Shown here one piece after another: positions 18-64,000 of a stretch of DNA of 64,000 bases. The notes below the pieces were generated by a model, which saw nothing but the letters and a program-made list of their open reading frames with translations, was not told where the DNA came from and ran no database searches. The stretch spans positions 1 through 64,000 of the IMG/VR virus record IMGVR_UViG_3300044845_000594, one strand, 5' to 3'. The DNA comes from a virus. Within the stretch, counting starts at the first letter, position 1. Each line of letters begins with the position of its first letter. The translations under genes were made by a program, and so were the position numbers.

Positions 18-2531
18 ATGCCAAGTCAAAGTATTAATTCATATTTTACACCAAAATATTCCCAAAAATTAAATTTTGCGGACTATTTCGATTTTACACT
101 TGTCGGAGATGAAAAAGACTACGATGAAGAGGTGGTATTTTCTAACGAACTCATTGCATACAATGACGGAAATAGACTTCCAATTTTATTTGATTTAGGG
201 GATTCAAACACTTGTCCTCAAATACCAATGTCGTTTGACACCTTTTATAGTGGTGCTACTTTAGTTAGTAAAAATTATTACAACCCTAATAATGTTGATT
301 TAGATTGTATCTCGGCATTTACGGGAACTTGTGATGTTGGAATAGTTGGAACCGATAATGGTTTATTTACTTCGTTGACAGGTCAAACACTTTATTACAC
401 TATGGGGGTTAGAAATGATTATAAGTTTAACCCAATATACTACGACAGAAGAATGAAAATGCATATGGTTACGGGGTATACCAATCTACCAAATGTTGTT
501 TTTTCAGGTAGACCAAAACAATCTATGTATAATATTGTTTCTAAAAGTGACCCAACAATTGGTTACTATCAAGAATTATACGGTGGTTTCTATCAAGGAT
601 TTTATAAACTTTTTGGTTATGACTATGAAGTTTTTCCTGAACGAGTAAATAAAGGTTGGACCATGGAGACGGTTATAAAACCAAGAAACTTAGATGAATA
701 TATTATTAATACATCAACTGAAGAGTATCTGAATACAAAATACCCAAGTAATGCTGGTACTTTTTTCTATTTTGGTACAAGAGCCGAAAACAAATTTTAT
801 CATTTTGCAAGTGGAAGTCCTGAATCGGATTCAGGATACACTAGAGCAACAACAGGATTAACAAGTTTAAGTAGTTGTACTTGTTATGAAACAGGATATA
901 CAAACGCAAATTGTGTAAAACTTTACCCAACTAGTTCAACAACGGCGTATCATAATATTGGTTGTGGATGTGGAGCATGTACAGAACAAATACCAGTTCC
1001 ACCATTAGACCCTAAATTTGATGTGTTGTCAAACGCATTATCAATTAGATTTAGTGGTTGTCCTTTAAATCCAAGTTTATGTATCAAATACATTAAAATA
1101 ACAGGAGATTGTGTCACAACAGGTGTTTGTGAAACTACTGGTGTTACTTTTCAAACAGGGTACACCATAACCGAAGTATGTACACCACCAATATATGATG
1201 TATGTGATTATGTTTGTGGGACAATAACTGAAGACAGATGGGTAATGGTTACGGCAGTTTTTGAAAGATATACAACAATAGAAGAATGTGATTTATTAAA
1301 TCTTGGCGGTTTAGGGGATATAAGAGAGGTGACTTATCAATCTATTTTAAACGGGACTGCATATAATTTGATTATGCCACCTGAAACACATTCTGGAGAC
1401 ACAAAAGAAAATAAAGTTTATAGAATTGTTTTTGACCATAAATGGTTTGATGATACTTGGTATAGATTAGGAAGACTAAAATTATATATCAACGGTTACT
1501 TATTCACCATAATTGAAAACTTTGAAGAAATAATTCCAAGAGAATTAAATTGTGAAAAAGAAAAACAAATCGGTGTACCGTTTAATATTTCTTGGGGTGG
1601 GGGTAGTCAAGGATTACATGACAATTTAATTTTTTCGGCAGATACGTTATTAACAGGACCATATATACAAGACCCTGAATTATTTCCAAATGAAATATTG
1701 TCAGCAACAACTTTAAGTGGTTTAACCACAAATATACTTGTTGAACAAAATTTTGGGGGTTCATTTATGGGGGGTATATCACAATTTAGAATGTATACTG
1801 AACCTTTTGCAAGTCCTCAAGTACAACATAATTTTAGAATTTTAAAAGATAAATTTGATTTGTTTGATTATTGGTGTCCTGATTGTTTGACTCCGGCACC
1901 AACTCCAACACCTACCCCTACCCCAACACCTACTCCTACTCCGACACCAACCCCAACACCTACCCCTACTCCGACACCCGCAAATATACTTGCAGTTGCA
2001 ATACCTTGTGCGGGTGAGTTTGATGCGGAAGTTATTTCAATACCTCCTCAATATCAAAATCTTGACAACTATTATGTTGTTGGTGGAACAAATGGTCAGT
2101 GTTATGTTGTTACAGGTCCATCTGCAGGTCCTCAAACTGTGACATGGAACGGTCAAGTGTATGGTCAAAATGGAGATTGTGCATTATGTCCTCCGGCTCC
2201 AACACCCGTACCTTGTTTAACAACACACCCATACTTATCCTCATATTTAAGTTTTTCTACTAATCAATATGGTAATTTTTCAAATAGTTATTCGTTGGCT
2301 TGTAGTTCGTTGTTGTGTTTATCTGCAGGAACATGTAGTACCAATGGAGCAATTGAATCTATGTACATTGATACTCCACAAATTCAAGTTGGTACGGTGT
2401 TCTATGGTGGACCTACAACATGTAATTACTATGGTATGACAGGATTTTATGTTGCACAAAACGGTGGAAACTACGTATTATTAAGTATTTCAAATGGCGT
2501 TGTTACTCAAGTATTAAATAATTGTTCATAA
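18..2531 (+). CDS. Large modular tail adhesin with LamG-like region and Pro-Thr linkers
   Basis: This 837-residue protein looks like a virion surface or tail fibre component. Residues about 130-615 form a beta-rich region with features of a concanavalin A/LamG-like fold, such as GWTMETVIKP near 215 and a later KLYINGYLF strand near 490, which are typical of receptor-binding sandwich domains. Residues 626-654 are an alternating Pro-Thr linker. Two small Cys-rich modules follow, separated by a second short Pro-rich hinge (PPAPTPVPC). No signal peptide is seen. Many Cys pairs suggest disulphide or metal stabilisation. The start at 18 has an A-rich leader and no Shine-Dalgarno. The 117-residue gene follows after 18 bases, so the two are probably cotranscribed. 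The adhesin role is inferred from architecture; I do not recognise an orthologue. Confidence 0.55.
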   Translation: MPSQSINSYFTPKYSQKLNFADYFDFTLVGDEKDYDEEVVFSNELIAYNDGNRLPILFDLGDSNTCPQIPMSFDTFYSGATLVSKNYYNPNNVDLDCISAFTGTCDVGIVGTDNGLFTSLTGQTLYYTMGVRNDYKFNPIYYDRRMKMHMVTGYTNLPNVVFSGRPKQSMYNIVSKSDPTIGYYQELYGGFYQGFYKLFGYDYEVFPERVNKGWTMETVIKPRNLDEYIINTSTEEYLNTKYPSNAGTFFYFGTRAENKFYHFASGSPESDSGYTRATTGLTSLSSCTCYETGYTNANCVKLYPTSSTTAYHNIGCGCGACTEQIPVPPLDPKFDVLSNALSIRFSGCPLNPSLCIKYIKITGDCVTTGVCETTGVTFQTGYTITEVCTPPIYDVCDYVCGTITEDRWVMVTAVFERYTTIEECDLLNLGGLGDIREVTYQSILNGTAYNLIMPPETHSGDTKENKVYRIVFDHKWFDDTWYRLGRLKLYINGYLFTIIENFEEIIPRELNCEKEKQIGVPFNISWGGGSQGLHDNLIFSADTLLTGPYIQDPELFPNEILSATTLSGLTTNILVEQNFGGSFMGGISQFRMYTEPFASPQVQHNFRILKDKFDLFDYWCPDCLTPAPTPTPTPTPTPTPTPTPTPTPTPTPTPANILAVAIPCAGEFDAEVISIPPQYQNLDNYYVVGGTNGQCYVVTGPSAGPQTVTWNGQVYGQNGDCALCPPAPTPVPCLTTHPYLSSYLSFSTNQYGNFSNSYSLACSSLLCLSAGTCSTNGAIESMYIDTPQIQVGTVFYGGPTTCNYYGMTGFYVAQNGGNYVLLSISNGVVTQVLNNCS
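1893..1979 (+). repeat. Pro-Thr dipeptide repeat linker
   Basis: A run of CCN-ACN codons encodes about fourteen Pro-Thr pairs. It separates the N-terminal lectin-like part of the adhesin from its C-terminal Cys-rich modules. Codons vary within the run, so selection is on protein sequence rather than DNA. Such linkers are extended, rigid spacers. Confidence 0.85.
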
Positions 2532-6148: not shown

Positions 6149-7270
6149 TTATATGATATTATAAGGACTTGTAAATGCTCTAAATTTCAAGGCTTTGTTC
6201 AAGTTTTCAGCCTGTAAGGCTTTTTGTTCCATTTGTTTTTCAGGTCTTAACCTTTCAAGTCTAGTTTTTAATTCTTCCCACAACATAGCCTTTTCATCTT
6301 TGGCTTCAGTATTCAAACTTTGCCACTCTAAGGTTAATTCACTATCAGGAGTCTTTAAACTACCACTATACTTACCTCTTACTTTTGCCAAAGTTTCTTT
6401 ACAGTATGCCGTAAACCATCTTCTAACCCAAGTTTTTGCTGGTGAATTTAATTCATCCCATCTCATTTCGTCAATTGGAACGTCAGAAGGAAGTCTAACT
6501 ACGTCAGGATTTTTCGCTAAACAATCATCTCTATCAAAAGTATCATAATACCAATACCATACTTTGTATTTTTGATAAGCAATATTTCCAAAATCAAATT
6601 TTCCACCAGGTACATTCATTAAATGTAATGCTTTTTTTCCTTCAGGAAGTGCCGTTATTCTATAAGTCAAATCTCCTGTTATGATTCTTCTTTTCATTTG
6701 AATGTCAGCCATTCTAAGTAAAATATCAAAGGCTGGTGTAATAAAATAATTTCCTGTTGTCCCCATTTGAGAAAATCCTGCTCCACCACCTAAACCAATA
6801 CCACCAAATCCACCAAATCCACCCATGAACGGGTCAAAATACGCTGCGTCTAATTCAGAACGAGAAAACCATAATATTTCATTGATTTCACGACCTGCAG
6901 GTATTTCATATATTTGTTGATTTGCAACTAAATCAATATAATCTTTTTTCAATACATAATCGCCACCAGCTTGTAATCCCACAATTTTTGAATATGCGTA
7001 AGTATATTGAGTTTCCCAATCCATACTTCTTGTAGTAAAGGCCCTTGTTAGTGATTGCTCATCTAAATTCAAACCGTTCAAAGAAGACCATTGAGCTTCA
7101 ATCAACCAATCATTAACGTGCTGTGCGTAATCCTGAATAGATAATTCTAATAATGAATCCATCATTTCGTCTTCTAATTCAACACTACGAATAGGGGCAC
7201 CTAAAAGATTTTTTATTCTTTTATATAATTTACTTCTTTCAGGTTCGGTGATAATTACAGTAGTTGCCAT
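6149..7270 (-). CDS. 13: Neck protein, T4 gp13-like
   Basis: A 373-residue protein with the layout of the T4 gp13 neck (head-closure) protein, which sits between portal and tail. Near the N-terminus, LLGAPIRSVEL matches the family's RLGAPIxxVEL start. The middle has GREINEILWFSRS and a Gly-rich loop (residues about 150-170). The C-terminal part has a WVRRWFTAYCKETLAKVRGKYSG helix region like the final helices of gp13, followed by a charged coiled segment. It is longer than T4 gp13 (309). Its partner gp14-like gene lies at 10212 on the other strand, so the neck genes are split by an inverted block. An exact TATTTATA lies 13 bases upstream on its own strand, suggesting late expression. The assignment rests on motif pattern and neighbours. 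Confidence 0.65.
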   Translation of the reverse strand: MATTVIITEPERSKLYKRIKNLLGAPIRSVELEDEMMDSLLELSIQDYAQHVNDWLIEAQWSSLNGLNLDEQSLTRAFTTRSMDWETQYTYAYSKIVGLQAGGDYVLKKDYIDLVANQQIYEIPAGREINEILWFSRSELDAAYFDPFMGGFGGFGGIGLGGGAGFSQMGTTGNYFITPAFDILLRMADIQMKRRIITGDLTYRITALPEGKKALHLMNVPGGKFDFGNIAYQKYKVWYWYYDTFDRDDCLAKNPDVVRLPSDVPIDEMRWDELNSPAKTWVRRWFTAYCKETLAKVRGKYSGSLKTPDSELTLEWQSLNTEAKDEKAMLWEELKTRLERLRPEKQMEQKALQAENLNKALKFRAFTSPYNII

Positions 7271-7282
7271 AAGTTTTTATTA

Positions 7283-7290
7283 TATAAATA
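7283..7290 (-). promoter_or_regulatory. Late-promoter-like TATTTATA element
   Basis: An exact TATTTATA on the minus strand, 12 bases before the gp13-like start codon. It is in the same orientation relative to the gene as the plus-strand copies. Confidence 0.5.
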
Positions 7291-7294
7291 TAAT

Positions 7295-8380
7295 TTAGTT
7301 GTTAAGTTTAGACTGAGTAGAATACAAATCATTAACAAATCCCCAATTAACCACTTTCCAAAAATTAGATACGTACTTGTCTCTTAGATTTTTGTATTTT
7401 AAATAATAAGCATGTTCCCAAACGTCAAGACCTAACAAGGGGTAACCTCTTTCTTCTTGATTATCCATTAGGGGGTTGTCTTGATTTGCGGTGGTTACAA
7501 TTTTCAATCTATTTTTATCTGTAAGAATCAACCATACCCAACCTGAACCAAAACGAGATTTGGCGGCGTCTTCAAATTCTGTTTTAAATTTTTCAAATGA
7601 ACCGAAAGTCTTTTCTATTTTACTTTTGATGGGGTCGTCTAACTTTTGTTTTTTAGGCGACATCATTTTCCAAAACAACGCATGATTAAATGCTCCACCA
7701 CCATTATTTCTAACTATTGTATTAAAACTTGAAATGTCAGATATAATTTGTTCTAAGTCTAAATCTTTACCACTTATTTTTTCTAATTCTTTATTTAATT
7801 TTTCAACATAACCTTTGTAATGTTTGTTGTAGTGAGTTTTCATTGTTTCACTATCAATAAAAACTTCTAAAGAATCATATTCGTAAGGTAGTTTATCTAC
7901 GCTTATTTTTTTAATTTCATTTATTAATGATTGTTTTTCTAAAGATTCTATTTGTAACAAAGATTCTATTCTTTCAATTCTTTCTGTAAAAGGTTTATAA
8001 ATAACTTTTTCTATTTTTTTATTACCTTTTTCGAATTTTTTTATTTCTTCAGATGCTTGAGAACTGGCTTCATTTTCATTTTTACCTCCAATGTCTTTAC
8101 CTTTTTTTCTATTAAGAACTGTTCTTTGATGTTCATGGGACCATTCATGTGCTAATGTTCTCATCACATCACGATTTAATCTATCTTTAACTAATATTTT
8201 TAATTTATGTTTGTCTGTCCTTGACCCTGTGGTCATTTTACCAGTTCTGTTATTTTGAAACAAGATTGTTATGTCATTTTCTAAAGGATAATTTTTTTTC
8301 AACTGAGAAATAAATTTGTTAATTAATTCTTTATCCTCCTTTGTTGGGTCAACATCTATATATTTAATATCCACGGTCAT
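7295..8380 (-). CDS. Zincin-like metalloprotease fused to Mn/Fe superoxide dismutase
   Basis: A 361-residue fusion. Residues about 1-120 look like a zinc metalloprotease: the helix MRTLAHEWSHEH gives an HExxH motif (H78, E79, H82), and E102 or E104 in GGKNENEAS could be the third ligand. A charged linker (about 120-160) follows. Residues 162-358 are a complete Mn/Fe superoxide dismutase: LPYEYDSLE start, metal ligands H183, H233 (in FNHALFW), D319 and H323 (in LDVWEHAYY), plus TTANQDNPLM, which is typical of Mn-type enzymes. The dismutase would turn superoxide into peroxide and oxygen. No signal peptide, so action is cytoplasmic or in the virion. The gene has its own TATTTATA four bases before ATG and sits between neck and helicase genes. 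Phage dismutases are rare; I know of no such fusion. Confidence 0.85.
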   Translation of the reverse strand: MTVDIKYIDVDPTKEDKELINKFISQLKKNYPLENDITILFQNNRTGKMTTGSRTDKHKLKILVKDRLNRDVMRTLAHEWSHEHQRTVLNRKKGKDIGGKNENEASSQASEEIKKFEKGNKKIEKVIYKPFTERIERIESLLQIESLEKQSLINEIKKISVDKLPYEYDSLEVFIDSETMKTHYNKHYKGYVEKLNKELEKISGKDLDLEQIISDISSFNTIVRNNGGGAFNHALFWKMMSPKKQKLDDPIKSKIEKTFGSFEKFKTEFEDAAKSRFGSGWVWLILTDKNRLKIVTTANQDNPLMDNQEERGYPLLGLDVWEHAYYLKYKNLRDKYVSNFWKVVNWGFVNDLYSTQSKLNN

Positions 8381-43029: not shown

Positions 43030-43494
43030 ATGGCAGATGGAAGAACTTATGGTGTTAATTTTCCCTTTAGGGATAGTCCAAAATCTTATTATTTTGATTT
43101 AACCGAAAATGCTGGTGATGAGATACGGGCAGACCTTTTACATTTGATATTAACCGCAAGAGGTAGTAGATATTATAATCCTGATTTTGGAACACGTATA
43201 TATGAATTTATTTTTGACCCTTTGGATGGTGAAACGTTTGACGGAATCAAATCTGAAATACAACAACAGGTTGACAAGTACATACCAAATTTAACTATAA
43301 ATGAAATTAAAGTGGTTCCATATTTACAATCAGATGAGGCTCCAGGTGACATTAACCAAGAGTTATTAGGAACAAGTGATATATATAGAATACCTGGTAG
43401 AGCAACTCAAGAATACACAGCTAAACTTACAATAGATTATACGGACGACAACAACTCGTTTGGTTCAAGAGAATTTATAATAATTAACATATAA
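43030..43494 (+). CDS. 25: Baseplate wedge protein gp25-like
   Basis: A 154-residue protein of the gp25/GpW family, which starts sheath polymerisation at the baseplate. The N-terminal part (GVNFPFRDSPKSYYFDLT) is followed by ILTARGSRYYNPDFGTRIYEFIFDPLD, the conserved core (GSRxxxPxFGxRI) of this family. T4 gp25 is 132 residues. It is immediately followed by gp6 (two bases), the usual order in many contractile tails. It belongs to the late structural block. Confidence 0.88.
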   Translation: MADGRTYGVNFPFRDSPKSYYFDLTENAGDEIRADLLHLILTARGSRYYNPDFGTRIYEFIFDPLDGETFDGIKSEIQQQVDKYIPNLTINEIKVVPYLQSDEAPGDINQELLGTSDIYRIPGRATQEYTAKLTIDYTDDNNSFGSREFIIINI

Positions 43495-54835: not shown

Positions 54836-57783
54836 TGGCAAAACAAATATTTAGATATCCACCTGCTCCACCTGTAGGAACTTTAACTGCGTTTGACAAC
54901 ATAGTTGGATTACAGTTGGTGACAGGAGGTGGATTAACACAAGGAAACTTTCAGTTTACAACTGCCATTTATGAAAAGGTAAATCGTAATTTTGATTTAG
55001 GTGTTTTCTCACAACTTTATAATTTAGAAAATTTAAATATTGAAGATGTTGAACAAACAAAAAAAATCATACAAAAAAACTTTTCAGTATATCCAAATTT
55101 TGATATATCACAAGTAACGAGTTTTACGTTGTATGGTTCACTTCAAAAAAGATTATCAGCGTCCGTAACAAAAATAATAAGTTATTTTCCGGCGGCCTTA
55201 GAAGTAAGAGGAACGACTCTGTCATTTACAACAGGATACACCGCTACAAATATTGCTTTTGACCCTATTGAAAATTTAACAACGTTTGATGTTGATGTTC
55301 CGTGGATAGTTAATCCTTTTGACATTGACTTCTCTGTAAACGCAGCAAGAAACATTCAAGTTAGACCTATAAAAGTTTCAAAATACCGTGATTTAACAAA
55401 TAACTACGAAAACTTTAGTTTATATTTTTCTGCTCTTACAACAGAATACCCTGTAGTTGATTTTATACCTTCAGCGACATTAACAGCAGGAACAATTACA
55501 TTCACAGTTGAAGGTGACCCTTTTTCAGGACAAACAATTTCAACAGAAACATTTATAGTAAAACCAAATACACAAAAAACTGCTGAAATATTCCAAGATG
55601 ATTTTGATGAGGTTGAGGATTTTATATTAAATAGAAATAGCCAACCAAAGTATACTGCGATTTTTGAGTACCCATACTACGATTCAGATGGGATTTTTAC
55701 ATTAAAAGTACAAAGTGTAACATGGGTATTGGACGGTTTATGGAATTTAGATATTGTGACATCTAATTTTGACACGTATTTAACAACTTTAAGTGAAATC
55801 GCACTTAATCTTGACGATTACAAAACCAATTTGATTTCAAGATTTCTAACAACAGGGGCATTCAAGGACTTTGACACTCAGGACCAAAAGATGGAAAAAA
55901 TTCTACAAATATATGGTAGAAGTTTTGATGAGGTTAAAAAGTTTATTGATGCCTTGGCGAATATGAACTCAGTGAACTATGTTGTGGGAAATGATATACC
56001 ATCACAGTTACTAACTAATTTAGCACAAACCTTGGGGGTAAATACAAATATATCGCCAATTAATAACGACCAATTATTAGATGCGGTGTTTAGTACAACA
56101 ACCGACCAAATTTATTCAGGTCAAGCAGAAGAAAAAACACCATCAGAATTAAACTATCAATATTTTAGAAATGTAATTCTAAACTCAGCATATATGTTTA
56201 AATCCAAAGGAACAAGAACATCTTTGGAATACATAATGAGATTGATTGGTGCACCTGAAGCAATAACAGAATTTAATGAAGTTGTGTATTTGGTCGATTC
56301 AAAAATTAATGTGGACCAATTTAAAGAAAATTATGCTAAAATAAGTGGAGGTACGGTTTATGTTGAAAAACCTGCATTAGACCCAACAAATACATTTTCT
56401 ATTCAAGGAGTAACATATACCGGATTTACAACAAACGGAGAAGTGCAAACTGTAACAACGTCAAGAAATGATTATGGTATTTCTGACGATGGTTACCCTA
56501 AGTCACCAACACAGACAGATGATTACTTTTTCCAAAAAGGTTCAGGTTGGTTTGAATCTAGCCCAAAACACAGGTCACCACAAGTTGTCGATTTAGAAAA
56601 TTCACAACTTGACCAAAACGTACCAAGTGTTGTAACACAACTACAACCTTTTTCATATGGTCAAGAATACTTAGACAGGTTTACTAAGTTTCCATTTTTG
56701 AATGAAGGGTATACAATAACAAAAATTTACGACAACCAAAAGTCTTGGTCCGTTGACGACATAGGAAACAGAAAAAATAATTCAAACTTTAATGGGGTTG
56801 ATTACACCATTACAAACGACAAACAACTTATAAACTCAAAAAATATTGAATTAAATATTAATATGGGTCAAGGGTTAGTTTATGATGTGTGGGATATGTG
56901 TGTTAAATACGATTACCCAATTCCAAATACCGGTTTAACGTCACCTTATCCATATCCAGGAGCGATAGATTGGACTTTTGTAAACCCACAACCAAAACAA
57001 AAAACATTTTTTGAATTTGCTCAATCGTTCTTTACCAACATGATTAATGTTAGAAATAGACAAACAATTTTCGACGGTAAGACAGGTGGTTACCCTACAC
57101 TTCAATCAATATATTGGAAATACCTTCAATCACAACAAACAGTAGGAATACCTTCCAATCAATTTACCTATCAAAAAATGATAGACTATACATTAGGTAT
57201 TGGTGATTATTGGCAAAGATTATTGGAACAGTTGGTTCCTGCAACAACACTTTGGCTCACGGGCCAAAAAATGGAAAACTCAATTTTCCATAGACAAAAA
57301 TTCATATGGAGAAGACAAAGAGGATGTCAATTTATACAAGTTGAATGTGTACCTTGTACATTTGACGGTCAGTTATTTGGATATGATTGTATAGACCAAA
57401 CTTTAAGATGTGAATTAAACTTTGACAGTCCACAAACTTATCTAACACAAGTTTTAAGTGCGGTTGTAAAACAGAGTGGGTACACTCAAGCCAATTGTGA
57501 TTTAACAAGTATAGTATCGGAGTGGTTTGTGGATTGTAGATTAGACAGTACGATTTTAGTTCAAGAGCAATTCTACACAGGATATGGTTTTTATGATGTG
57601 CCAACGGTTGCTCAAATAACAGCGGCAATTGATGACAAATTACAAGAATTATATAATCATGGACTAAACTATTATTTTGCGGGTAAAACTTTAGTAATAA
57701 GTAATTCAACTTGTTATGATGACTTCACAAATAAAAAACTGTACTTAAATATAGGTATAAACGCTAGTATAAATTGTAATTAA
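54835..57783 (+). CDS. Baseplate protein with phage tail protein I-like region
   Basis: A 982-residue protein. Residues about 345-480 match the P2 gpI pattern: FKDFDTQDQKMEKILQIYGRSFDEVKKFID, then LLTNLAQTLGVN, and YFRNVILNSAYMFKSKGTRTSLEYIMRLIGAPE, which is the conserved KGTxxxLxxxLxxxG block. P2 gpI and the N-terminal part of T4 gp7 are wedge proteins that carry fibres, so this may be the real gp7 analogue. N-terminal and C-terminal parts are added; the C-terminus has several Cys (CQFIQVECVPCTFDG). It is coupled to the upstream gene and to the SprB-like fibre gene downstream (TAATG). Confidence 0.65.
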   Translation: MAKQIFRYPPAPPVGTLTAFDNIVGLQLVTGGGLTQGNFQFTTAIYEKVNRNFDLGVFSQLYNLENLNIEDVEQTKKIIQKNFSVYPNFDISQVTSFTLYGSLQKRLSASVTKIISYFPAALEVRGTTLSFTTGYTATNIAFDPIENLTTFDVDVPWIVNPFDIDFSVNAARNIQVRPIKVSKYRDLTNNYENFSLYFSALTTEYPVVDFIPSATLTAGTITFTVEGDPFSGQTISTETFIVKPNTQKTAEIFQDDFDEVEDFILNRNSQPKYTAIFEYPYYDSDGIFTLKVQSVTWVLDGLWNLDIVTSNFDTYLTTLSEIALNLDDYKTNLISRFLTTGAFKDFDTQDQKMEKILQIYGRSFDEVKKFIDALANMNSVNYVVGNDIPSQLLTNLAQTLGVNTNISPINNDQLLDAVFSTTTDQIYSGQAEEKTPSELNYQYFRNVILNSAYMFKSKGTRTSLEYIMRLIGAPEAITEFNEVVYLVDSKINVDQFKENYAKISGGTVYVEKPALDPTNTFSIQGVTYTGFTTNGEVQTVTTSRNDYGISDDGYPKSPTQTDDYFFQKGSGWFESSPKHRSPQVVDLENSQLDQNVPSVVTQLQPFSYGQEYLDRFTKFPFLNEGYTITKIYDNQKSWSVDDIGNRKNNSNFNGVDYTITNDKQLINSKNIELNINMGQGLVYDVWDMCVKYDYPIPNTGLTSPYPYPGAIDWTFVNPQPKQKTFFEFAQSFFTNMINVRNRQTIFDGKTGGYPTLQSIYWKYLQSQQTVGIPSNQFTYQKMIDYTLGIGDYWQRLLEQLVPATTLWLTGQKMENSIFHRQKFIWRRQRGCQFIQVECVPCTFDGQLFGYDCIDQTLRCELNFDSPQTYLTQVLSAVVKQSGYTQANCDLTSIVSEWFVDCRLDSTILVQEQFYTGYGFYDVPTVAQITAAIDDKLQELYNHGLNYYFAGKTLVISNSTCYDDFTNKKLYLNIGINASINCN

Positions 57784-60086
57784 TGGCTTGTTTTTCGGGT
57801 TTAACGGATGGGGTATATAGGTACTATGATTGTTGTGGTAACTTTGTAGTTGGAGTTTCTTTAGGGGAAACTATTTGTTTTGATAGTGCGTACTCAGCAT
57901 CAACATTTGGTGTTTATAACACAATGTCCGCTTGTACACCAACTTGCGATGACCAACCATTAGGACTAACATTTACAATCACAGGTACATGCTCATCCCC
58001 AACGGGTTCTGTAACATTTTCACCATATGGTGGAATACCTCCATACACAATAGATAATATACAACCTGGTGGAATAAGTGCTCAAACGTCATCAAGTCCA
58101 ATAACATTTTCAGGATTAACCGCCGACACCTATGTGTTTAGGTTAAATGATTCTGAAGGGTTTGAAAATAACGAATTATATATAAACGTTATTATAACAG
58201 GTTGTTTTTATACTGACATTATTGACGTAACACCAACCACATGTGGAGAAAATAATGGAACACTAACTGTAAGTGCCGACTCTCAAATGTCGCCTTATAC
58301 TTTAATATTATCCACATCAGGAGGTACTGTTGAATCACAAGTAACAACTTTGTTCCCTTATACATTCACAAATCTATCTGCGGACACATATTTTGTTCAA
58401 GTTGTGGATTATGGGTTGTCAACTGCAACAACATCTAACGCAATTGTTTCATCCTCTTCAAATTTTGATTTTGGTTTTTGGAAAGTAAATACGTCTACTT
58501 GTGTGATTAATGAAGGTAAACTTTCAATCACAGGACTTACAGGAACATCACCTTACACATATCTTTGGAATAACGGTGAGACGGGTCAAACAATAACAGG
58601 TTTAACAATTGGAACTTATAGTTGTACTGTAACTGATGGTAATGGTTGTGTGGTGACTAAAAGTGATACTATAGGTGAAGCCGACCCACTTGGAGTTGGT
58701 ATTGTTACTTCTGTAAATCCTTCTTGTTTTTCATCAGACGGTAGTATTACATTTACAATTACAGGGGGTAGTGTCCCTTATTATTATTCCGCCAGCACAT
58801 CACAAGTAGGGTATACATTAAGCGATACATTAACCTTATCAGGTTTATCAAGTGGAAATTACAATTTAGAAATTACAGATGCGAACTTTTGTAAACAAAT
58901 AATAAGTGCATTTATTAATGCTGAAAATTCATTTTTTATAGTTGATACGGTAGTAACTAATTCTAATTGTAGTCAACAACTTGGTTCATTAACTGTTTCA
59001 TTACAAGGTTCAAATAATTTTTATAGTTATATATTATCGGGACAAACGAACGGTTTAGTATATACCAATACAACACAAAGTTTAACTAGTACGTTTTCAG
59101 GTTTAACAAATGATACGTATGACTTAATTATATCTGCAACAGGAACAAACTGTGAATACACAACAACTGTTACGTTGGCATCTACTGATAAGTTTGAAAT
59201 AAGTGCAACAACAACTGGTTCAACATGTTCACAAAATGATGGTGTTTTACAAGTTCAAGTTGGGACTGGTTACACATCACCTTTGGACTATATATTAAGT
59301 GACGGTCAATCAGTATTAGATACATCATTATCTTCATATACCTTTAATAATTTAGTGGCTGGTAGTTATACTCTTACAGTTGTTGATGCAGATGGATGTC
59401 AAATTGATGAACAAGTAACAATATCAACGGGAGGTAGTTTAATTAGTGCAATATCAACAACACAATGTTATGGTGGTCAAAATGGAACTGCGCAAGTATT
59501 AATATACGACGGAGAACCAACATTTAGTTATGATTGGTCAGATAATGTTCCGTCAGGACAAACGGGTTCAACTATATCCGGTTTAACCGCCGGTACGTAT
59601 TCTGTTGAAGTTACAGACAGTCGCGGATGTTCACAAACTCACAATTTTACAATCACATGTTCAGGAAATAATGTAACAACATACTCTGTTGTTGAATTGT
59701 GTCAAAATGAATTTGCAACAACAGTTGGGGCTAAACGTGGATTTTTAGAAATGTTAAATGAGGGGTATATTGATGTTACAAGTGGATATACGGGATGTAG
59801 TTTAAATACTGCAGAATTTATACTTGAAATGAATATTAACGGAAGTGCATTTACTCAAACATTCTATACCGCAACAACATTGAATGATGTTCCACAAGAC
59901 ACTGTTTGGCAATCAACAATAGAAGGGATATTAAGTGGTGTTACTGATATTAGTAGTTATACTATAAGTTTGACAGATAATACAATTCACATTGAATCAA
60001 ATTGTGAGGGAGACACCGACCCATTGGCTGATGCTAACTTCACTTTAGAATTAACAATAGACTACGATGTAACTTGTTATACATAG
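57783..60086 (+). CDS. Tail fibre/adhesin made of SprB-like repeats
   Basis: A 767-residue protein. After an N-terminal Cys-rich attachment domain (about 1-60), seven repeats of roughly 75-85 residues follow. The third, fifth and seventh are near-canonical SprB repeats (TCxxNxGxLSITGLTGTSPYTYLWNNGETG, then GLTIGTYSCTVTDGNGC), known from gliding adhesins of flavobacteria. Each has the Pro-Tyr-x-Tyr/Trp core and a Tyr-x-(V/L)-x-V-x-D-x-x-G-C end. The C-terminal 130 residues are a separate domain. It is probably a long fibre that binds the host surface. It ends with TAG, unlike most neighbours (TAA); the next ATG follows in the same frame without a gap. Confidence 0.75.
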   Translation: MACFSGLTDGVYRYYDCCGNFVVGVSLGETICFDSAYSASTFGVYNTMSACTPTCDDQPLGLTFTITGTCSSPTGSVTFSPYGGIPPYTIDNIQPGGISAQTSSSPITFSGLTADTYVFRLNDSEGFENNELYINVIITGCFYTDIIDVTPTTCGENNGTLTVSADSQMSPYTLILSTSGGTVESQVTTLFPYTFTNLSADTYFVQVVDYGLSTATTSNAIVSSSSNFDFGFWKVNTSTCVINEGKLSITGLTGTSPYTYLWNNGETGQTITGLTIGTYSCTVTDGNGCVVTKSDTIGEADPLGVGIVTSVNPSCFSSDGSITFTITGGSVPYYYSASTSQVGYTLSDTLTLSGLSSGNYNLEITDANFCKQIISAFINAENSFFIVDTVVTNSNCSQQLGSLTVSLQGSNNFYSYILSGQTNGLVYTNTTQSLTSTFSGLTNDTYDLIISATGTNCEYTTTVTLASTDKFEISATTTGSTCSQNDGVLQVQVGTGYTSPLDYILSDGQSVLDTSLSSYTFNNLVAGSYTLTVVDADGCQIDEQVTISTGGSLISAISTTQCYGGQNGTAQVLIYDGEPTFSYDWSDNVPSGQTGSTISGLTAGTYSVEVTDSRGCSQTHNFTITCSGNNVTTYSVVELCQNEFATTVGAKRGFLEMLNEGYIDVTSGYTGCSLNTAEFILEMNINGSAFTQTFYTATTLNDVPQDTVWQSTIEGILSGVTDISSYTISLTDNTIHIESNCEGDTDPLADANFTLELTIDYDVTCYT

Positions 60087-60610: not shown

Positions 60611-61393
60611 ATGCCGGATTTACCAATATCATCCTTACCTGCAGCATCGACAGGTTACTCTAATTCATTATTGGTAATTGTAAATTACAATCCAATAATA
60701 TCAGGTAGAACAGAAGCAGTACCATTTAGTGCTATAACTGCATCAATTGCCGGAACTTCAGGCACAAATGGAACTAATGGGTCTTCAGGAACCAGTGGTA
60801 CAAATGGAACTAGCGGGTCCTCGGGAACTAACGGTACAAGTGGAACTAGCGGAACTAACGGCACAAGCGGAACTAACGGAACCAGTGGTACAAATGGTAC
60901 TAGCGGAACTAACGGAACCAGTGGCGTCGATGGTAGTGGTAGAGCATGGGGGTCTTTTTTGTCCACAACGGACCAATATGTTTCAAGTACCTCTAGTGCG
61001 TTTTCTATGAGTGCGGACACCAATACTGGTTCTAATGGTGTAACATTATCGGCAAATACAAAATTTGTTGTTGCAAGTGCCGGTGTTTATAATTTACAAT
61101 TTTCCGCTCAATTAGAATCAACAGGTGGTGGTTCAGCACAAACTATGGATATATGGTTAGCTAAAAATGGTAGTAATGTTACTAACTCAAATACACAAGT
61201 TGTCGTAAATTCTAATAATGGTAGAACTGTAGCTGCTTGGAATTTTGTAATAGACCTTTCAGCCAATGAATTTTTAGAATTAAAATTTAGAGTAGATGAC
61301 ACAAGATTAGGTTTACAATATGATGCAGGACCTTTTACATCACCCACTAGACCGGCCATTCCATCTTTGATTGTTACAATCACACAAGTTTAA
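60611..61393 (+). CDS. Collagen-like tail fibre with C1q-like head
   Basis: A 260-residue protein. Residues 1-47 are the attachment end. Residues 48-110 are 21 Gly-X-Y triplets, nearly all GTS or GTN, with no Pro; this would form a collagen-like triple helix. Residues 116-260 resemble a trimeric C1q/TNF or BclA-type head (FVVASAGVYNLQFSAQLES, then MDIWLAKNGSNV, LSANEFLELKFRVDD, and PSLIVTITQV). Such heads bind receptors or close the trimer. Thr-, Ser- and Asn-rich triplets are good glycosylation acceptors, and two glycosyltransferase genes follow directly. The triple helix is stabilised by Thr/Asn rather than hydroxyproline, as in some bacterial collagens. A fibre tip or tail-surface spike is inferred. 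Confidence 0.75.
   Translation: MPDLPISSLPAASTGYSNSLLVIVNYNPIISGRTEAVPFSAITASIAGTSGTNGTNGSSGTSGTNGTSGSSGTNGTSGTSGTNGTSGTNGTSGTNGTSGTNGTSGVDGSGRAWGSFLSTTDQYVSSTSSAFSMSADTNTGSNGVTLSANTKFVVASAGVYNLQFSAQLESTGGGSAQTMDIWLAKNGSNVTNSNTQVVVNSNNGRTVAAWNFVIDLSANEFLELKFRVDDTRLGLQYDAGPFTSPTRPAIPSLIVTITQV
60752..60940 (+). repeat. Gly-Thr-Ser/Asn collagen-like triplet repeat
   Basis: 21 in-frame triplets with the order GTS/GTN, encoded by near-identical nine-base DNA units (GGAACTAGC-like). It causes the long antisense frames in this area. DNA repetition suggests length variation by slippage. Confidence 0.85.
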
Positions 61394-61418
61394 TTATTTA
61401 TTTTTAGTCTTGAGGTAT

Positions 61419-61426
61419 TATTTTTG
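61419..61426 (+). promoter_or_regulatory. Possible -7 box (TATTTTTG) before glycosyltransferases
   Basis: TATTTTTG exactly fits the Bacteroidota -7 consensus TAnnTTTG, 14 bases before the start at 61441. No clear TTG lies at the right distance, so support is weak. Confidence 0.3.
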
Positions 61427-61440
61427 TTTAAAATGATAAT

Positions 61441-62682
61441 ATGAAAATATTTGTCCAAATTGCGTCTTATAGAGACCCCGAACTTTTACCGACAATCAGA
61501 GACTGCATTTCAAAGGCAAAAAACCCTGAGAATTTAACCTTTGGTATTTGTTGGCAACGAGATGAAAATGAATCTATGGGAGAATTTGCAAATGACGAAA
61601 GATTCAAAATATTAGATTATCATTGGTCAAAAAGTAAAGGACTGTGTTGGGCTCGTTCAGAAATTCAAAAATTATGGAACGGAGAAGAATACACATTACA
61701 ATTAGATTCACACCATAGATTCTTACAGGATTGGGATATTGAGTTGATTGAAATGATGAAAATGACAGGTTCAAAAAAACCAATCATTACTGCATATGCA
61801 GGCATGTATGAACCCAAAACTAATAAATTATTAAATGTTGAGCCATACAAAATGGTTGCATCTAACTTCACACCGGGAGGAACAATTATGTTTAGACCTC
61901 ACGAAATTCCAAATTGGAAAGAGTTAGATAAACCAATACCTGCAAGATTTGTTAGTGGTCACTTTTTCTTTACGATTGGAAAACATTGTGAAGAATATAA
62001 GTATGACCCCAACATTTACTTTGCTGGTGATGAAATCAGTTTATCTATTAGGTCATATACATTAGGTTATGATTTATTTCACCCACATAAAACAGTTGTT
62101 TGGCATGAATACACAAGAGAAGGTAGAACAAAACATTGGACGGATTTTAATGAGGAAAACAAACAAAGTGGGGTAGTTGAAGAACCATGGTGGGAAATGG
62201 ATACTAAGTCCAAAATAAGACTTAGACACATGTTACAAGAAGAAGACCATGGTATTGACTTGGGGGAATATGGATTAGGTAATGTAAGAACTCATCGTGA
62301 TTATGAATTGTATGCGGGTATTAATTTTTTAGATAGAAAATTACATCCAAAGACATTGAAAGGTGAAAATCCACCCATTAATGATGAAACTGATTGGCAT
62401 AAAAAAGAAAGTTTTATGTTTACATACAATATAATTGTTCCAAGATTAGAAGCCCCTGAAGATGATTATGATTTTTGGGCAATTTCATTTTTGGACGATT
62501 TAGGAAATGAAATTTATAGACAAGATGCCAATAGTAATGAAATCAAAGAATTGTATGAAGTAAAAAGTGATTACGTAAATATAAAAAGAACATTCTTGGT
62601 GGATAGAACAACAAAAAGTTGGTCAATTTGGATACACCATAGACAAAGTGGTTGGGTTAAACAAATTACAGGTGAAATATGA
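61441..62682 (+). CDS. Glycosyltransferase, GT60-like (GlcNAc-transferase family)
   Basis: A 413-residue cytoplasmic enzyme. KIFVQIASYRDPEL is the typical start of the GT60 family (Skp1-type polypeptide GlcNAc-transferases). LQLDSHHRF (D89-S90-H91) is the DXD-like metal/nucleotide-sugar site, and YFAGDEISLSIR is the conserved acceptor-side motif. HWSKSKGLCWARS is another family block. The family adds GlcNAc to hydroxyproline, but homologues modify other protein residues. Residues after about 300 form an extra C-terminal beta domain. It lies directly after the collagen-like fibre and overlaps the second transferase by four bases (ATGA). A role in glycosylating the fibre is inferred. Confidence 0.8.
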   Translation: MKIFVQIASYRDPELLPTIRDCISKAKNPENLTFGICWQRDENESMGEFANDERFKILDYHWSKSKGLCWARSEIQKLWNGEEYTLQLDSHHRFLQDWDIELIEMMKMTGSKKPIITAYAGMYEPKTNKLLNVEPYKMVASNFTPGGTIMFRPHEIPNWKELDKPIPARFVSGHFFFTIGKHCEEYKYDPNIYFAGDEISLSIRSYTLGYDLFHPHKTVVWHEYTREGRTKHWTDFNEENKQSGVVEEPWWEMDTKSKIRLRHMLQEEDHGIDLGEYGLGNVRTHRDYELYAGINFLDRKLHPKTLKGENPPINDETDWHKKESFMFTYNIIVPRLEAPEDDYDFWAISFLDDLGNEIYRQDANSNEIKELYEVKSDYVNIKRTFLVDRTTKSWSIWIHHRQSGWVKQITGEI

Positions 62683-63476
62683 ATATAGGGGTTTTTTACC
62701 AATCAGGTCATAAATTAGTTGCTTGTTATAAAGCAATTGAACAGTTTAGAAAATTTTATCCAAACGCACCAATTTCTTTATTTGAAGATGGTTCGGAGTT
62801 ATTAGAGCCTGTGGCAAAAAAATTTAATTGTGACTACACTTGGATTAAACAACAAGGAGTTAATAACCTACATTCAGGTAAAGTTTTTGTTGATAAAGAT
62901 GGATTATATCGGTGGTTGACAAGAATATATGAGGCTTGTCTAACAACACTTAAAGACGTTGAATGGATTATTCATTATGAAGATGATGTTTGGTGTAAAT
63001 GTGAAATAACAATACCACCAAAGTTTGATATATCAGGAGCTTATGGACCATATTACACAAAAGAATTGTATGAATATCTAAAAAATAAATTTAATATTAA
63101 AGACAACTCAAGACACGTTTGGAGTGAATTAGGGTCTTTAGAAAATTATGGGGCTTGTGGTGGTGCAATTTTCAATAGAGAAAAGTTTATAGAAATATAT
63201 AATAGATTAGGTGAAGTACCTTGGGACGAAATATATAAATTAGACTCAAGGCCTGTGGAGTGGTGTGATGCAACTCTTTCATTTTTATTTCAATTTTTTG
63301 GATTTACTTGGGGACCATGGGATGATTGGTCACAATACGAAGACAAAAATATAGGAAATTGGTGGGATAAAACAGGATGGTCAGTACCTATGGAAGAACA
63401 AAAAGATGTTGCATTTATTCATGCATACAAACATTTTTACTGTTATAAACCTGAAGAAATAAATTTGGAGTTTTAA
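62679..63476 (+). CDS. Second glycosyltransferase, GT-A-like
   Basis: A 265-residue protein. Starting MNIGVFYQSGHKLVACYKAI and IIHYEDDVWC (E101-D102-D103) is the DXD-like site of a GT-A fold. LSFLFQFFGFTWGPWDDWSQ and DVAFIHAYKHFYC are conserved-looking acceptor-site segments. No signal peptide. It starts in the stop of the GT60-like gene (ATGA), so the two are translated together and may act in sequence on the same glycan. Sugar donor and acceptor are not known. Confidence 0.65.
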   Translation: MNIGVFYQSGHKLVACYKAIEQFRKFYPNAPISLFEDGSELLEPVAKKFNCDYTWIKQQGVNNLHSGKVFVDKDGLYRWLTRIYEACLTTLKDVEWIIHYEDDVWCKCEITIPPKFDISGAYGPYYTKELYEYLKNKFNIKDNSRHVWSELGSLENYGACGGAIFNREKFIEIYNRLGEVPWDEIYKLDSRPVEWCDATLSFLFQFFGFTWGPWDDWSQYEDKNIGNWWDKTGWSVPMEEQKDVAFIHAYKHFYCYKPEEINLEF

Positions 63477-63520: not shown

Positions 63521-64000
63521 ATGGCAAATATACTTTTACAGAGTTGTTGTTACCCCGGTTTACAATATTTTACAAACCAAACTAATTGGACCGCTGGGAC
63601 TTCGGCTGTAACTTCTGTTTATTATATTACTTATGATGCATCTGTTGTAAGTGGATGTTATTCAATTGTTTCTGCGTTTACGTCAGGGTTTACCGCAACA
63701 AGTTATGTACCTAATGGAACATATGGACTACAAACAGGATGTACCGCCTCAAGTTGTGCAACAGGAGAATGTTGTTCTAATAAATATTGTGTTGTAATAA
63801 ATAAAGATGAATATTCTGCATACACCGGAACATATGTTGTTGCGGGAGGATATAACGGATTCCCCTTTTTCACAGGAGGAACACAACCAGGGTATATCTA
63901 TAAAAGTGCTACAAAATGGTGTTTAGGTACAGCACCTGGTACAAATTGTTTCTTCTACGGACAAAACCCAACGACTTCTGTTTGTCCAAATCTTTTTACC
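63521..64000 (+). CDS. Cys-rich surface protein, partial (runs off the window)
   Basis: An open frame of 160 codons from ATG 63521 that is still open at the end of the window. It starts MANILLQSCCYPGL and has many Cys (CTASSCATGECCSNKYC), Gly and Tyr. This style matches the C-terminal modules of the first gene of the window. An exact TATTTATA and an A-rich leader precede it. It is probably another tail fibre or adhesin module. Length and C-terminal domains are unknown. Confidence 0.55.
   Translation, partial: MANILLQSCCYPGLQYFTNQTNWTAGTSAVTSVYYITYDASVVSGCYSIVSAFTSGFTATSYVPNGTYGLQTGCTASSCATGECCSNKYCVVINKDEYSAYTGTYVVAGGYNGFPFFTGGTQPGYIYKSATKWCLGTAPGTNCFFYGQNPTTSVCPNLFT

What the first reader, a model, noticed from the sequence alone, without database searches (positions are those of the whole stretch)
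60611..63476. Collagen-like fibre and two glycosyltransferases: a self-glycosylating fibre unit
The fibre has 21 Gly-Thr-Ser/Asn triplets without Pro, so it has many Thr/Ser/Asn acceptors. A GT60-like transferase (a family that modifies polypeptides) and a second GT-A-like enzyme follow directly and overlap each other. The three could form a unit in which the phage decorates its own fibre with a glycan, changing adsorption or hiding from host defences. The usual hydroxyproline acceptor of GT60 is absent.
Basis: partly seen in the sequence, partly recalled or inferred. Interest (0 to 1): 0.75.

Follow-up and report, generated by a model that had tools for sequence, protein, structure and literature searches.

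The report
Phage mucin-like protein glycosylation module
A large aquatic phage carries an enzyme built like the one that starts sugar-coating of animal mucins, and in relatives it keeps company with a threonine-proline-rich, mucin-like phage protein far more faithfully than with the collagen-like fibre first proposed as its target.

Summary
The three genes are real: a collagen-like fibre (60611-61393), a GT60-family transferase (61441-62682) and a second GT-A-type transferase (62679-63476, ATGA overlap). The fibre has 21 Gly-X-Y triplets without Pro, 17 of them GTS/GTN.

"The phage glycosylates its own surface protein" survives as the best idea, but the acceptor probably has to change. In relatives the collagen gene is optional and its head exchanges independently of the transferases. 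The constant partner is the next gene, 63521-65128 (window edge 64000), with (TP)11, (TP)8 and (TP)12 arrays. All 51 syntenic GT60 loci carry such a protein. Around GT60 genes TP-rich ORFs fall from 21-24% at gene distance 1-2 to 0% beyond 10; bacterial GT60 loci show the same decay. Two close relatives with a 99%-identical TP protein carry different transferase pairs.

The GT60 model (pLDDT 91) best matches polypeptide GalNAc-transferases, initiators of mucin-type O-glycosylation; the second enzyme resembles GT6, a sugar-extending family. Protist GT60 enzymes glycosylate Thr in mucin-like repeats.

Proposed: phage-encoded mucin-type O-glycosylation of a tail-region protein, with exchangeable glycan type. 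Counter-examples exist, notably a distant shorter GT60 clade; no glycan has been shown.

The parts
60611..61393 (+). Collagen-like fibre: N-terminal anchor (res 1-47), 21 Gly-X-Y triplets (48-110), C-terminal head (111-260). One variant in an exchangeable fibre slot; optional in relatives.
61441..62682 (+). GT60-family (PF11397) polypeptide glycosyltransferase, proposed initiator of O-glycosylation; invariant D89-S90-H91 among 38 relatives
62679..63476 (+). Second GT-A glycosyltransferase (GT6-like fold, invariant EDD), proposed glycan-extending enzyme; replaced by HtrL/YibB, GT34 or nothing in relatives
63521..64000 (+). Start of the 535-aa Thr-Pro-array (mucin-like) protein (to 65128 in the record): proposed acceptor; (TP)11, (TP)8 and (TP)12 arrays between domains
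18..2531 (+). Second TP-array protein in this genome ((TP)13 at residues 629-654); its 47%-identical homologue lies directly next to GT60 in L137. Possible second acceptor.
43030..43494 (+). Baseplate wedge protein gp25, upstream of the fibre block (context)
57783..60086 (+). SprB-repeat protein upstream of the module (conserved neighbour)

Best explanation
This is a phage-encoded mucin-type O-glycosylation module. The GT60 enzyme transfers a first sugar (probably a HexNAc from a UDP-sugar) in the host cytoplasm to threonines in the Thr-Pro arrays of the adjacent multidomain protein (63521-65128), and possibly of the (TP)13 protein at 18-2531. The overlapping second transferase extends that sugar. 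The glycosylated arrays would serve as stiff, protected, sugar-coated stalks on the virion. Swapping of the transferase pair between phages changes the glycan type while the protein stays the same, as in serotype switching. Shown by sequence or model: the genes, the family, the fold, the association, the cassette swap. Inferred: sugar, linkage, acceptor residue, virion location, benefit.
For: (1) Family and fold: PF11397 at 2.8e-67; model pLDDT 91, the first 37 Foldseek hits all polypeptide GalNAc-transferases; invariant DSH motif. (2) Protist GT60 enzymes add alpha-GlcNAc to Thr of mucin-like proteins (PMC3769586, PMC3188802, PMC8724618). (3) All 51 syntenic GT60 loci have a (TP)>=4 protein, against 15 of 25 without GT60 in the locus. 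(4) TP-rich ORFs: 44 of 198 genes at distance 1-2 from phage GT60, 7 of 420 beyond 5; in bacteria 12 of 342 within 3 and 0 of 342 beyond. (5) The association recurs in other contexts: L028, L035, L042, L133-L137, L139-L141, including a 1754-aa PTNTPTPTETPT protein directly beside GT60. (6) GT60 in 11 of 50 TP-repeat records against 1 of 50 GTX-repeat records (Fisher p 0.004). (7) L057/L058: TP protein 99% identical, but GT60 54% and a different second GT; flanks 91-92% identical in DNA. (8) Where GT60 is absent in L065, a GT29 sialyltransferase-family gene sits beside the TP gene.
Against: No glycan, donor sugar or virion location is shown. L029, L036/L046, L138, and jumbo phages XacN1 and RAS14 have GT60 without an adjacent TP gene. 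In a distant, shorter (about 300 aa) GT60-like clade most of 29 clusters have no TP gene near by. TP runs are common in viral contigs and most TP-run records lack GT60, so TP arrays can exist without it. The syntenic loci share ancestry and include near-duplicates, so Fisher p-values on them overstate the evidence; at 60% clustering only 7 of 12 phage clusters have a TP-rich gene within 5 genes. The GTB265 model is only moderate (pLDDT 73).
Confidence: 0.6

Rival explanations
1. One reading: the collagen-like fibre is the acceptor; Thr/Ser/Asn of the GTS/GTN triplets carry the glycan and the three genes form a unit.
For: Adjacent and co-oriented; many Thr acceptors; the L041/L009 swap block includes the 3' part of the collagen gene; from general knowledge, Thr in the collagen region of Bacillus BclA is glycosylated.
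Against: Collagen absent in most GT60 relatives; 1 of 50 GTX-repeat records has GT60; head and transferases recombine independently (L009/L040: GT60 95%, head 13%; L040/L041: head 72%, GT60 53%).
Confidence: 0.13
2. The transferases modify the host's surface polysaccharide (superinfection exclusion), as proposed for glycosyltransferases in the hypervariable tail region of pelagimyophages.
For: Published proposal for pelagimyophages (PMC7029224); the second enzyme is GT6-like and would act on glycans.
Against: GT60 fold and family act on polypeptides (PMC8724618); the gene tracks a phage-encoded repeat protein.
Confidence: 0.1
3. DNA hypermodification: the enzymes glycosylate modified bases.
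For: Offered as one possible role for the glycosyltransferases of the moraphage lineage (PMC12619734).
Against: Polypeptide-transferase family and fold; gene lies in the fibre block next to a TP protein. Base-modification genes were not searched for.
Confidence: 0.04
4. GT60 glycosylates hydroxyproline in the TP arrays (Skp1-like route).
For: In L262, L264 and L265 a 2OG-Fe(II) oxygenase and a radical-SAM-type gene lie between a TP protein and GT60.
Against: No PF13640 oxygenase in the window's record or in 20 of 21 related records; a host hydroxylase or other oxygenase families are not excluded.
Confidence: 0.06

Closest known systems
GT60 polypeptide alpha-GlcNAc-transferases of Dictyostelium and Trypanosoma cruzi (mucin-type O-glycosylation)
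   Same: Same Pfam family (PF11397); Thr-rich mucin-like proteins as acceptors (PMC3769586, PMC3188802)
   Different: Phage gene, necessarily cytoplasmic (no Golgi); acceptor is a predicted phage tail-region protein; donor and linkage unknown
Metazoan polypeptide GalNAc-transferases (GT27)
   Same: Closest solved structures; D-x-H type motif
   Different: Different CAZy family; Pfam family PF11397 instead; the C-terminal part of this model is beta-rich and was not identified
Mycobacteriophage virion glycosylation (Freeman 2023, as cited in PMC12619734; the paper itself was not available)
   Same: Phage-encoded glycosyltransferases said to glycosylate capsid and tail-tube subunits
   Different: Acceptor there is the C-terminus of capsid/tail-tube proteins; here TP arrays in a fibre block; enzyme relationship not tested
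Moraphages (PMC12619734): large aquatic Bacteroidota phages with four core glycosyltransferase orthogroups
   Same: Possibly a related lineage (large aquatic phages); glycosyltransferases are core there but without an assigned target
   Different: Membership of this record was not tested; that paper names no acceptor or mucin-like partner in the passages read
Glycosylated Pro-Thr linkers of bacterial cellulases/cellulosomes (general knowledge)
   Same: TP-rich interdomain linkers carrying O-glycans
   Different: Secreted bacterial enzymes, not phage proteins

Membership tests
GT60 / PF11397 | Score above the curated Pfam cut-off over the catalytic domain | tested here: met
   228 bits vs 21, residues 53-296, plus a second N-terminal stretch
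GT60 / PF11397 | Metal/UDP-binding DxD- or DxH-type motif conserved | tested here: met
   D89-S90-H91 invariant in 38 sequences; role inferred from GT27 by recall
GT60 / PF11397 | GT-A fold related to polypeptide HexNAc-transferases | tested here: met
   Foldseek E 1e-11 to GalNAc-T2; TM 0.66 by length of a 276-residue GalNAc-T2 chain
GT60 / PF11397 | UDP-GlcNAc:polypeptide activity | not testable with these tools
   needs an enzyme assay
Skp1 hydroxyproline GlcNAc-transferase branch | Prolyl hydroxylase providing hydroxyproline | tested here: not met
   no PF13640 match in the 120-kb record; 1 of 21 related records; record may be incomplete
Mucin-like acceptor protein | Dense Thr/Ser-Pro repeats, kept at protein level | tested here: met
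   (TP)11, (TP)8, (TP)12 with mixed synonymous codons
Mucin-like acceptor protein | O-glycans on the repeats | not testable with these tools
   needs mass spectrometry
Collagen-like phage fibre | Gly-X-Y repeat run above the Pfam Collagen cut-off | tested here: met
   35.3 bits vs 27.2
Three-gene unit (collagen + GT60 + second GT) | The three genes occur and vary together | tested here: not met
   collagen in 17 of 51 GT60 loci; GTB265 absent or replaced in 33 of 51; head and GT pair vary independently
Moraphages | Placement in the lineage by TerL/MCP/PolB phylogeny | not tested
   resemblance only, from PMC12619734

The most novel reading that the evidence does not exclude
A widespread phage-encoded mucin-type O-glycosylation system in which an initiating polypeptide transferase and exchangeable extension enzymes (GT6-like, HtrL/YibB, GT34) decorate a mucin-like Thr-Pro virion protein, so that phages switch their surface glycan type while keeping the protein; bacterial GT60 enzymes with TP-rich partners would be the cellular counterpart.
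Probability: 0.42. Interest if true: 0.82.

Novelty: new variant of a known kind. Interest (0 to 1): 0.62.

Why it matters
Glycosyltransferases are core genes in some large aquatic phages but have no assigned target (PMC12619734). A named acceptor, the Thr-Pro-array protein, makes the question testable with one coexpression and one virion proteomics experiment. If right, mucin-type protein glycosylation, best known from animals and protists, is also used by phages, and exchange of glycan-building genes is a way for a phage to vary its surface without changing the protein.

Tried and rejected
Collagen fibre as necessary partner: rejected by relatives. Prolyl-hydroxylase route in this genome: no PF13640 match. 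Sequence search of the PDB with GT60, its profile, the second transferase and the collagen head: nothing significant. TP arrays as a plain DNA microsatellite: third codon positions are mixed, although some 18-24-base units recur. TP arrays as a specific marker of GT60: rejected, most TP-run records lack it. GT60 with TP neighbours as a universal rule in phages: rejected by the shorter distant clade. The permutation with a random gene of the same locus is weak at 65% clustering (5 of 9 clusters observed against 2.6 expected), so the distance-decay test was used as well; it was chosen after seeing the first result. The mycobacteriophage glycosylation paper is not held.

Full report
WHAT IS THERE. 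The window is the first 64 kb of a 120,302-base linear virus record. At 60611-61393 lies a 260-residue collagen-like protein with 21 uninterrupted Gly-X-Y triplets, no Pro, 17 of them GTS or GTN. Forty-seven bases on lies a 413-residue protein of Pfam family PF11397 (GT60; 2.8e-67; phrog_24687). Its TGA overlaps the ATG of a 265-residue protein without Pfam match. The next gene, cut by the window edge, runs from 63521 to 65128 in the record: 535 residues with (TP)11, (TP)8 and (TP)12 arrays between domains. The block lies downstream of baseplate gene gp25, so a tail-fibre role is likely but inferred. The only other long TP array found in the record is a (TP)13 in the protein at 18-2531.

WHAT THE ENZYMES ARE. 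An alignment of 38 phage relatives keeps D89-S90-H91 and many other residues invariant. The model of GT60 has pLDDT 91. [quoted passage not shown] Overall TM-scores by query length are 0.43-0.52 because the second domain differs; on a 276-residue GalNAc-T2 chain the score is 0.66. The second enzyme (pLDDT 73) is closest to GT6 enzymes such as BoGT6a and the blood-group A/B synthases, which extend existing glycans; this assignment is moderate. In the literature GT60 starts mucin-type glycosylation in Dictyostelium and Trypanosoma cruzi by adding alpha-GlcNAc to Thr of mucin-like proteins (PMC3769586, PMC3188802, PMC8724618).

WHAT IS THE PARTNER. Forty-five IMG/VR loci with close GT60 relatives and 80 loci found through an unrelated conserved gene downstream, p737, were compared. 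Collagen-like genes are optional; among 51 GT60-positive loci with enough upstream sequence 17 have one, while all 51 have a (TP)>=4 protein; of 25 loci without GT60 in range 15 have one. These 51 include near-duplicates. Several of the 25 do have GT60 just outside the stretch or elsewhere, and two of those inspected (L065, L071) have a gene on the reverse strand beside the TP gene, identified as GT29 sialyltransferase family in L065. In other genomic contexts GT60 again sits by TP-rich proteins: L028, L035, L042, L133-L137 and L139-L141, including a 1754-residue protein with long stretches of PTNTPTPTETPT-type repeats, and, in L137, a 47%-identical homologue of this genome's own 18-2531 protein.

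HOW STRONG IS IT. After clustering GT60 at 85%, TP-rich ORFs make up 21% and 23.5% of genes at distances 1 and 2, 3.2% at 6-10 and 0% beyond 10 in phages. In bacterial GT60 loci, fetched independently of any repeat, 12 of 342 genes within distance 3 are TP-rich and none of 342 further out. Collagen-like ORFs are 5% at distance 1 in phages and absent in bacteria. From the other direction, GT60 is found in 11 of 50 viral records picked for a TP repeat and in 1 of 50 picked for a Gly-Thr-X repeat, with the second set holding more DNA. Shared ancestry inflates the p-values; at 60% clustering 7 of 12 phage clusters keep a TP-rich gene within 5 genes. A control within GT60 itself failed to generalise: a distant, shorter GT60-like clade reached through L262 mostly lacks TP neighbours. 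The rule therefore holds for the roughly 400-residue clade to which the window's enzyme belongs, plus scattered others (L262, L264, L265).

A NATURAL EXCHANGE EXPERIMENT. L057 and L058 have TP proteins 99% identical and p737 98% identical, but GT60 only 54% identical, with GTB265 replaced by an HtrL/YibB-family protein. In DNA (the same two contigs, L041 and L009) the flanks are 91-92% identical and the similarity breaks inside the collagen gene and just before the TP gene. Among other pairs the collagen head and the transferase pair separate (L009/L040, L040/L041). So transferases are exchanged above an unchanged TP protein, and collagen heads are exchanged on their own account. The second-enzyme slot is GTB265 in 18, HtrL/YibB-like in 17 and neither in 16 of 51 loci.

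MECHANISM. Most likely: GT60 adds the first sugar to Thr in the TP arrays, the second enzyme extends it, and the sugar-coated stalks protect or space out fibre domains or alter recognition; exchanging the enzymes changes the glycan. The family, fold, association and exchange are shown; sugar, residue, virion location and benefit are inferred. A hydroxyproline route is less likely here, since no PF13640 oxygenase was found in the record, but in L262, L264 and L265 such an oxygenase and a radical-SAM-type gene lie between a TP protein and GT60, which may be a different version of the system.

RELATION TO WHAT IS KNOWN. The enzyme is a GT60 member by family, motif and fold; activity is untested. 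Phage virion glycosylation by phage enzymes is known in mycobacteriophages (cited in PMC12619734; original not available). A 2025 description of large aquatic Bacteroidota phages reports four core glycosyltransferase groups without an acceptor. A search for phage papers with mucin-like or threonine-proline terms returned nothing, which is weak evidence of novelty because the library is partial.

Noticed in passing
L262, L264, L265 (and L471, L480, L486, L487): Gene order TP-array protein - 2OG-Fe(II) oxygenase (PF13640) - radical SAM/SPASM - GT60-like in phages unrelated to the window's; suggests a hydroxylation-plus-glycosylation version of the module.
   Followed up: partly
L065, L071: A reverse-strand gene (GT29 sialyltransferase family in L065, PF00777) takes the place of GT60 beside the TP-array gene; unusual family for a phage.
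   Followed up: partly
L405 (Jiulongibacter sediminis) 6941-7729: Bacterial GT60 divergently next to a 262-aa protein with an N-terminal RR-plus-hydrophobic stretch and dense PTPTPTLTPS repeats: a possible secreted bacterial mucin-like protein with its own GT60.
   Followed up: partly
L117, L111, L128: Genes without a convincing Pfam match (FFLHDADIVFR-type motif) before PTxT-rich proteins; by eye they resemble plant SGT1/HPAT peptidyl glycosyltransferases, untested.
   Followed up: no
L141 5700-7500: GT60 cluster with genes resembling HldE-type heptose kinase/adenylyltransferase (by eye), suggesting the phage also makes an activated sugar.
   Followed up: no
window 57783-60086 and record 67033-68604: SprB-repeat proteins (PF13573) in the fibre block; SprB repeats are known from gliding adhesins of Bacteroidota, hinting at the host phylum.
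   Followed up: no
record 113196-117016 (L049): Series of small proteins starting MKQFIISEQEK..RILEMHQ with shared N-termini, repeated near the end of the record.
   Followed up: no
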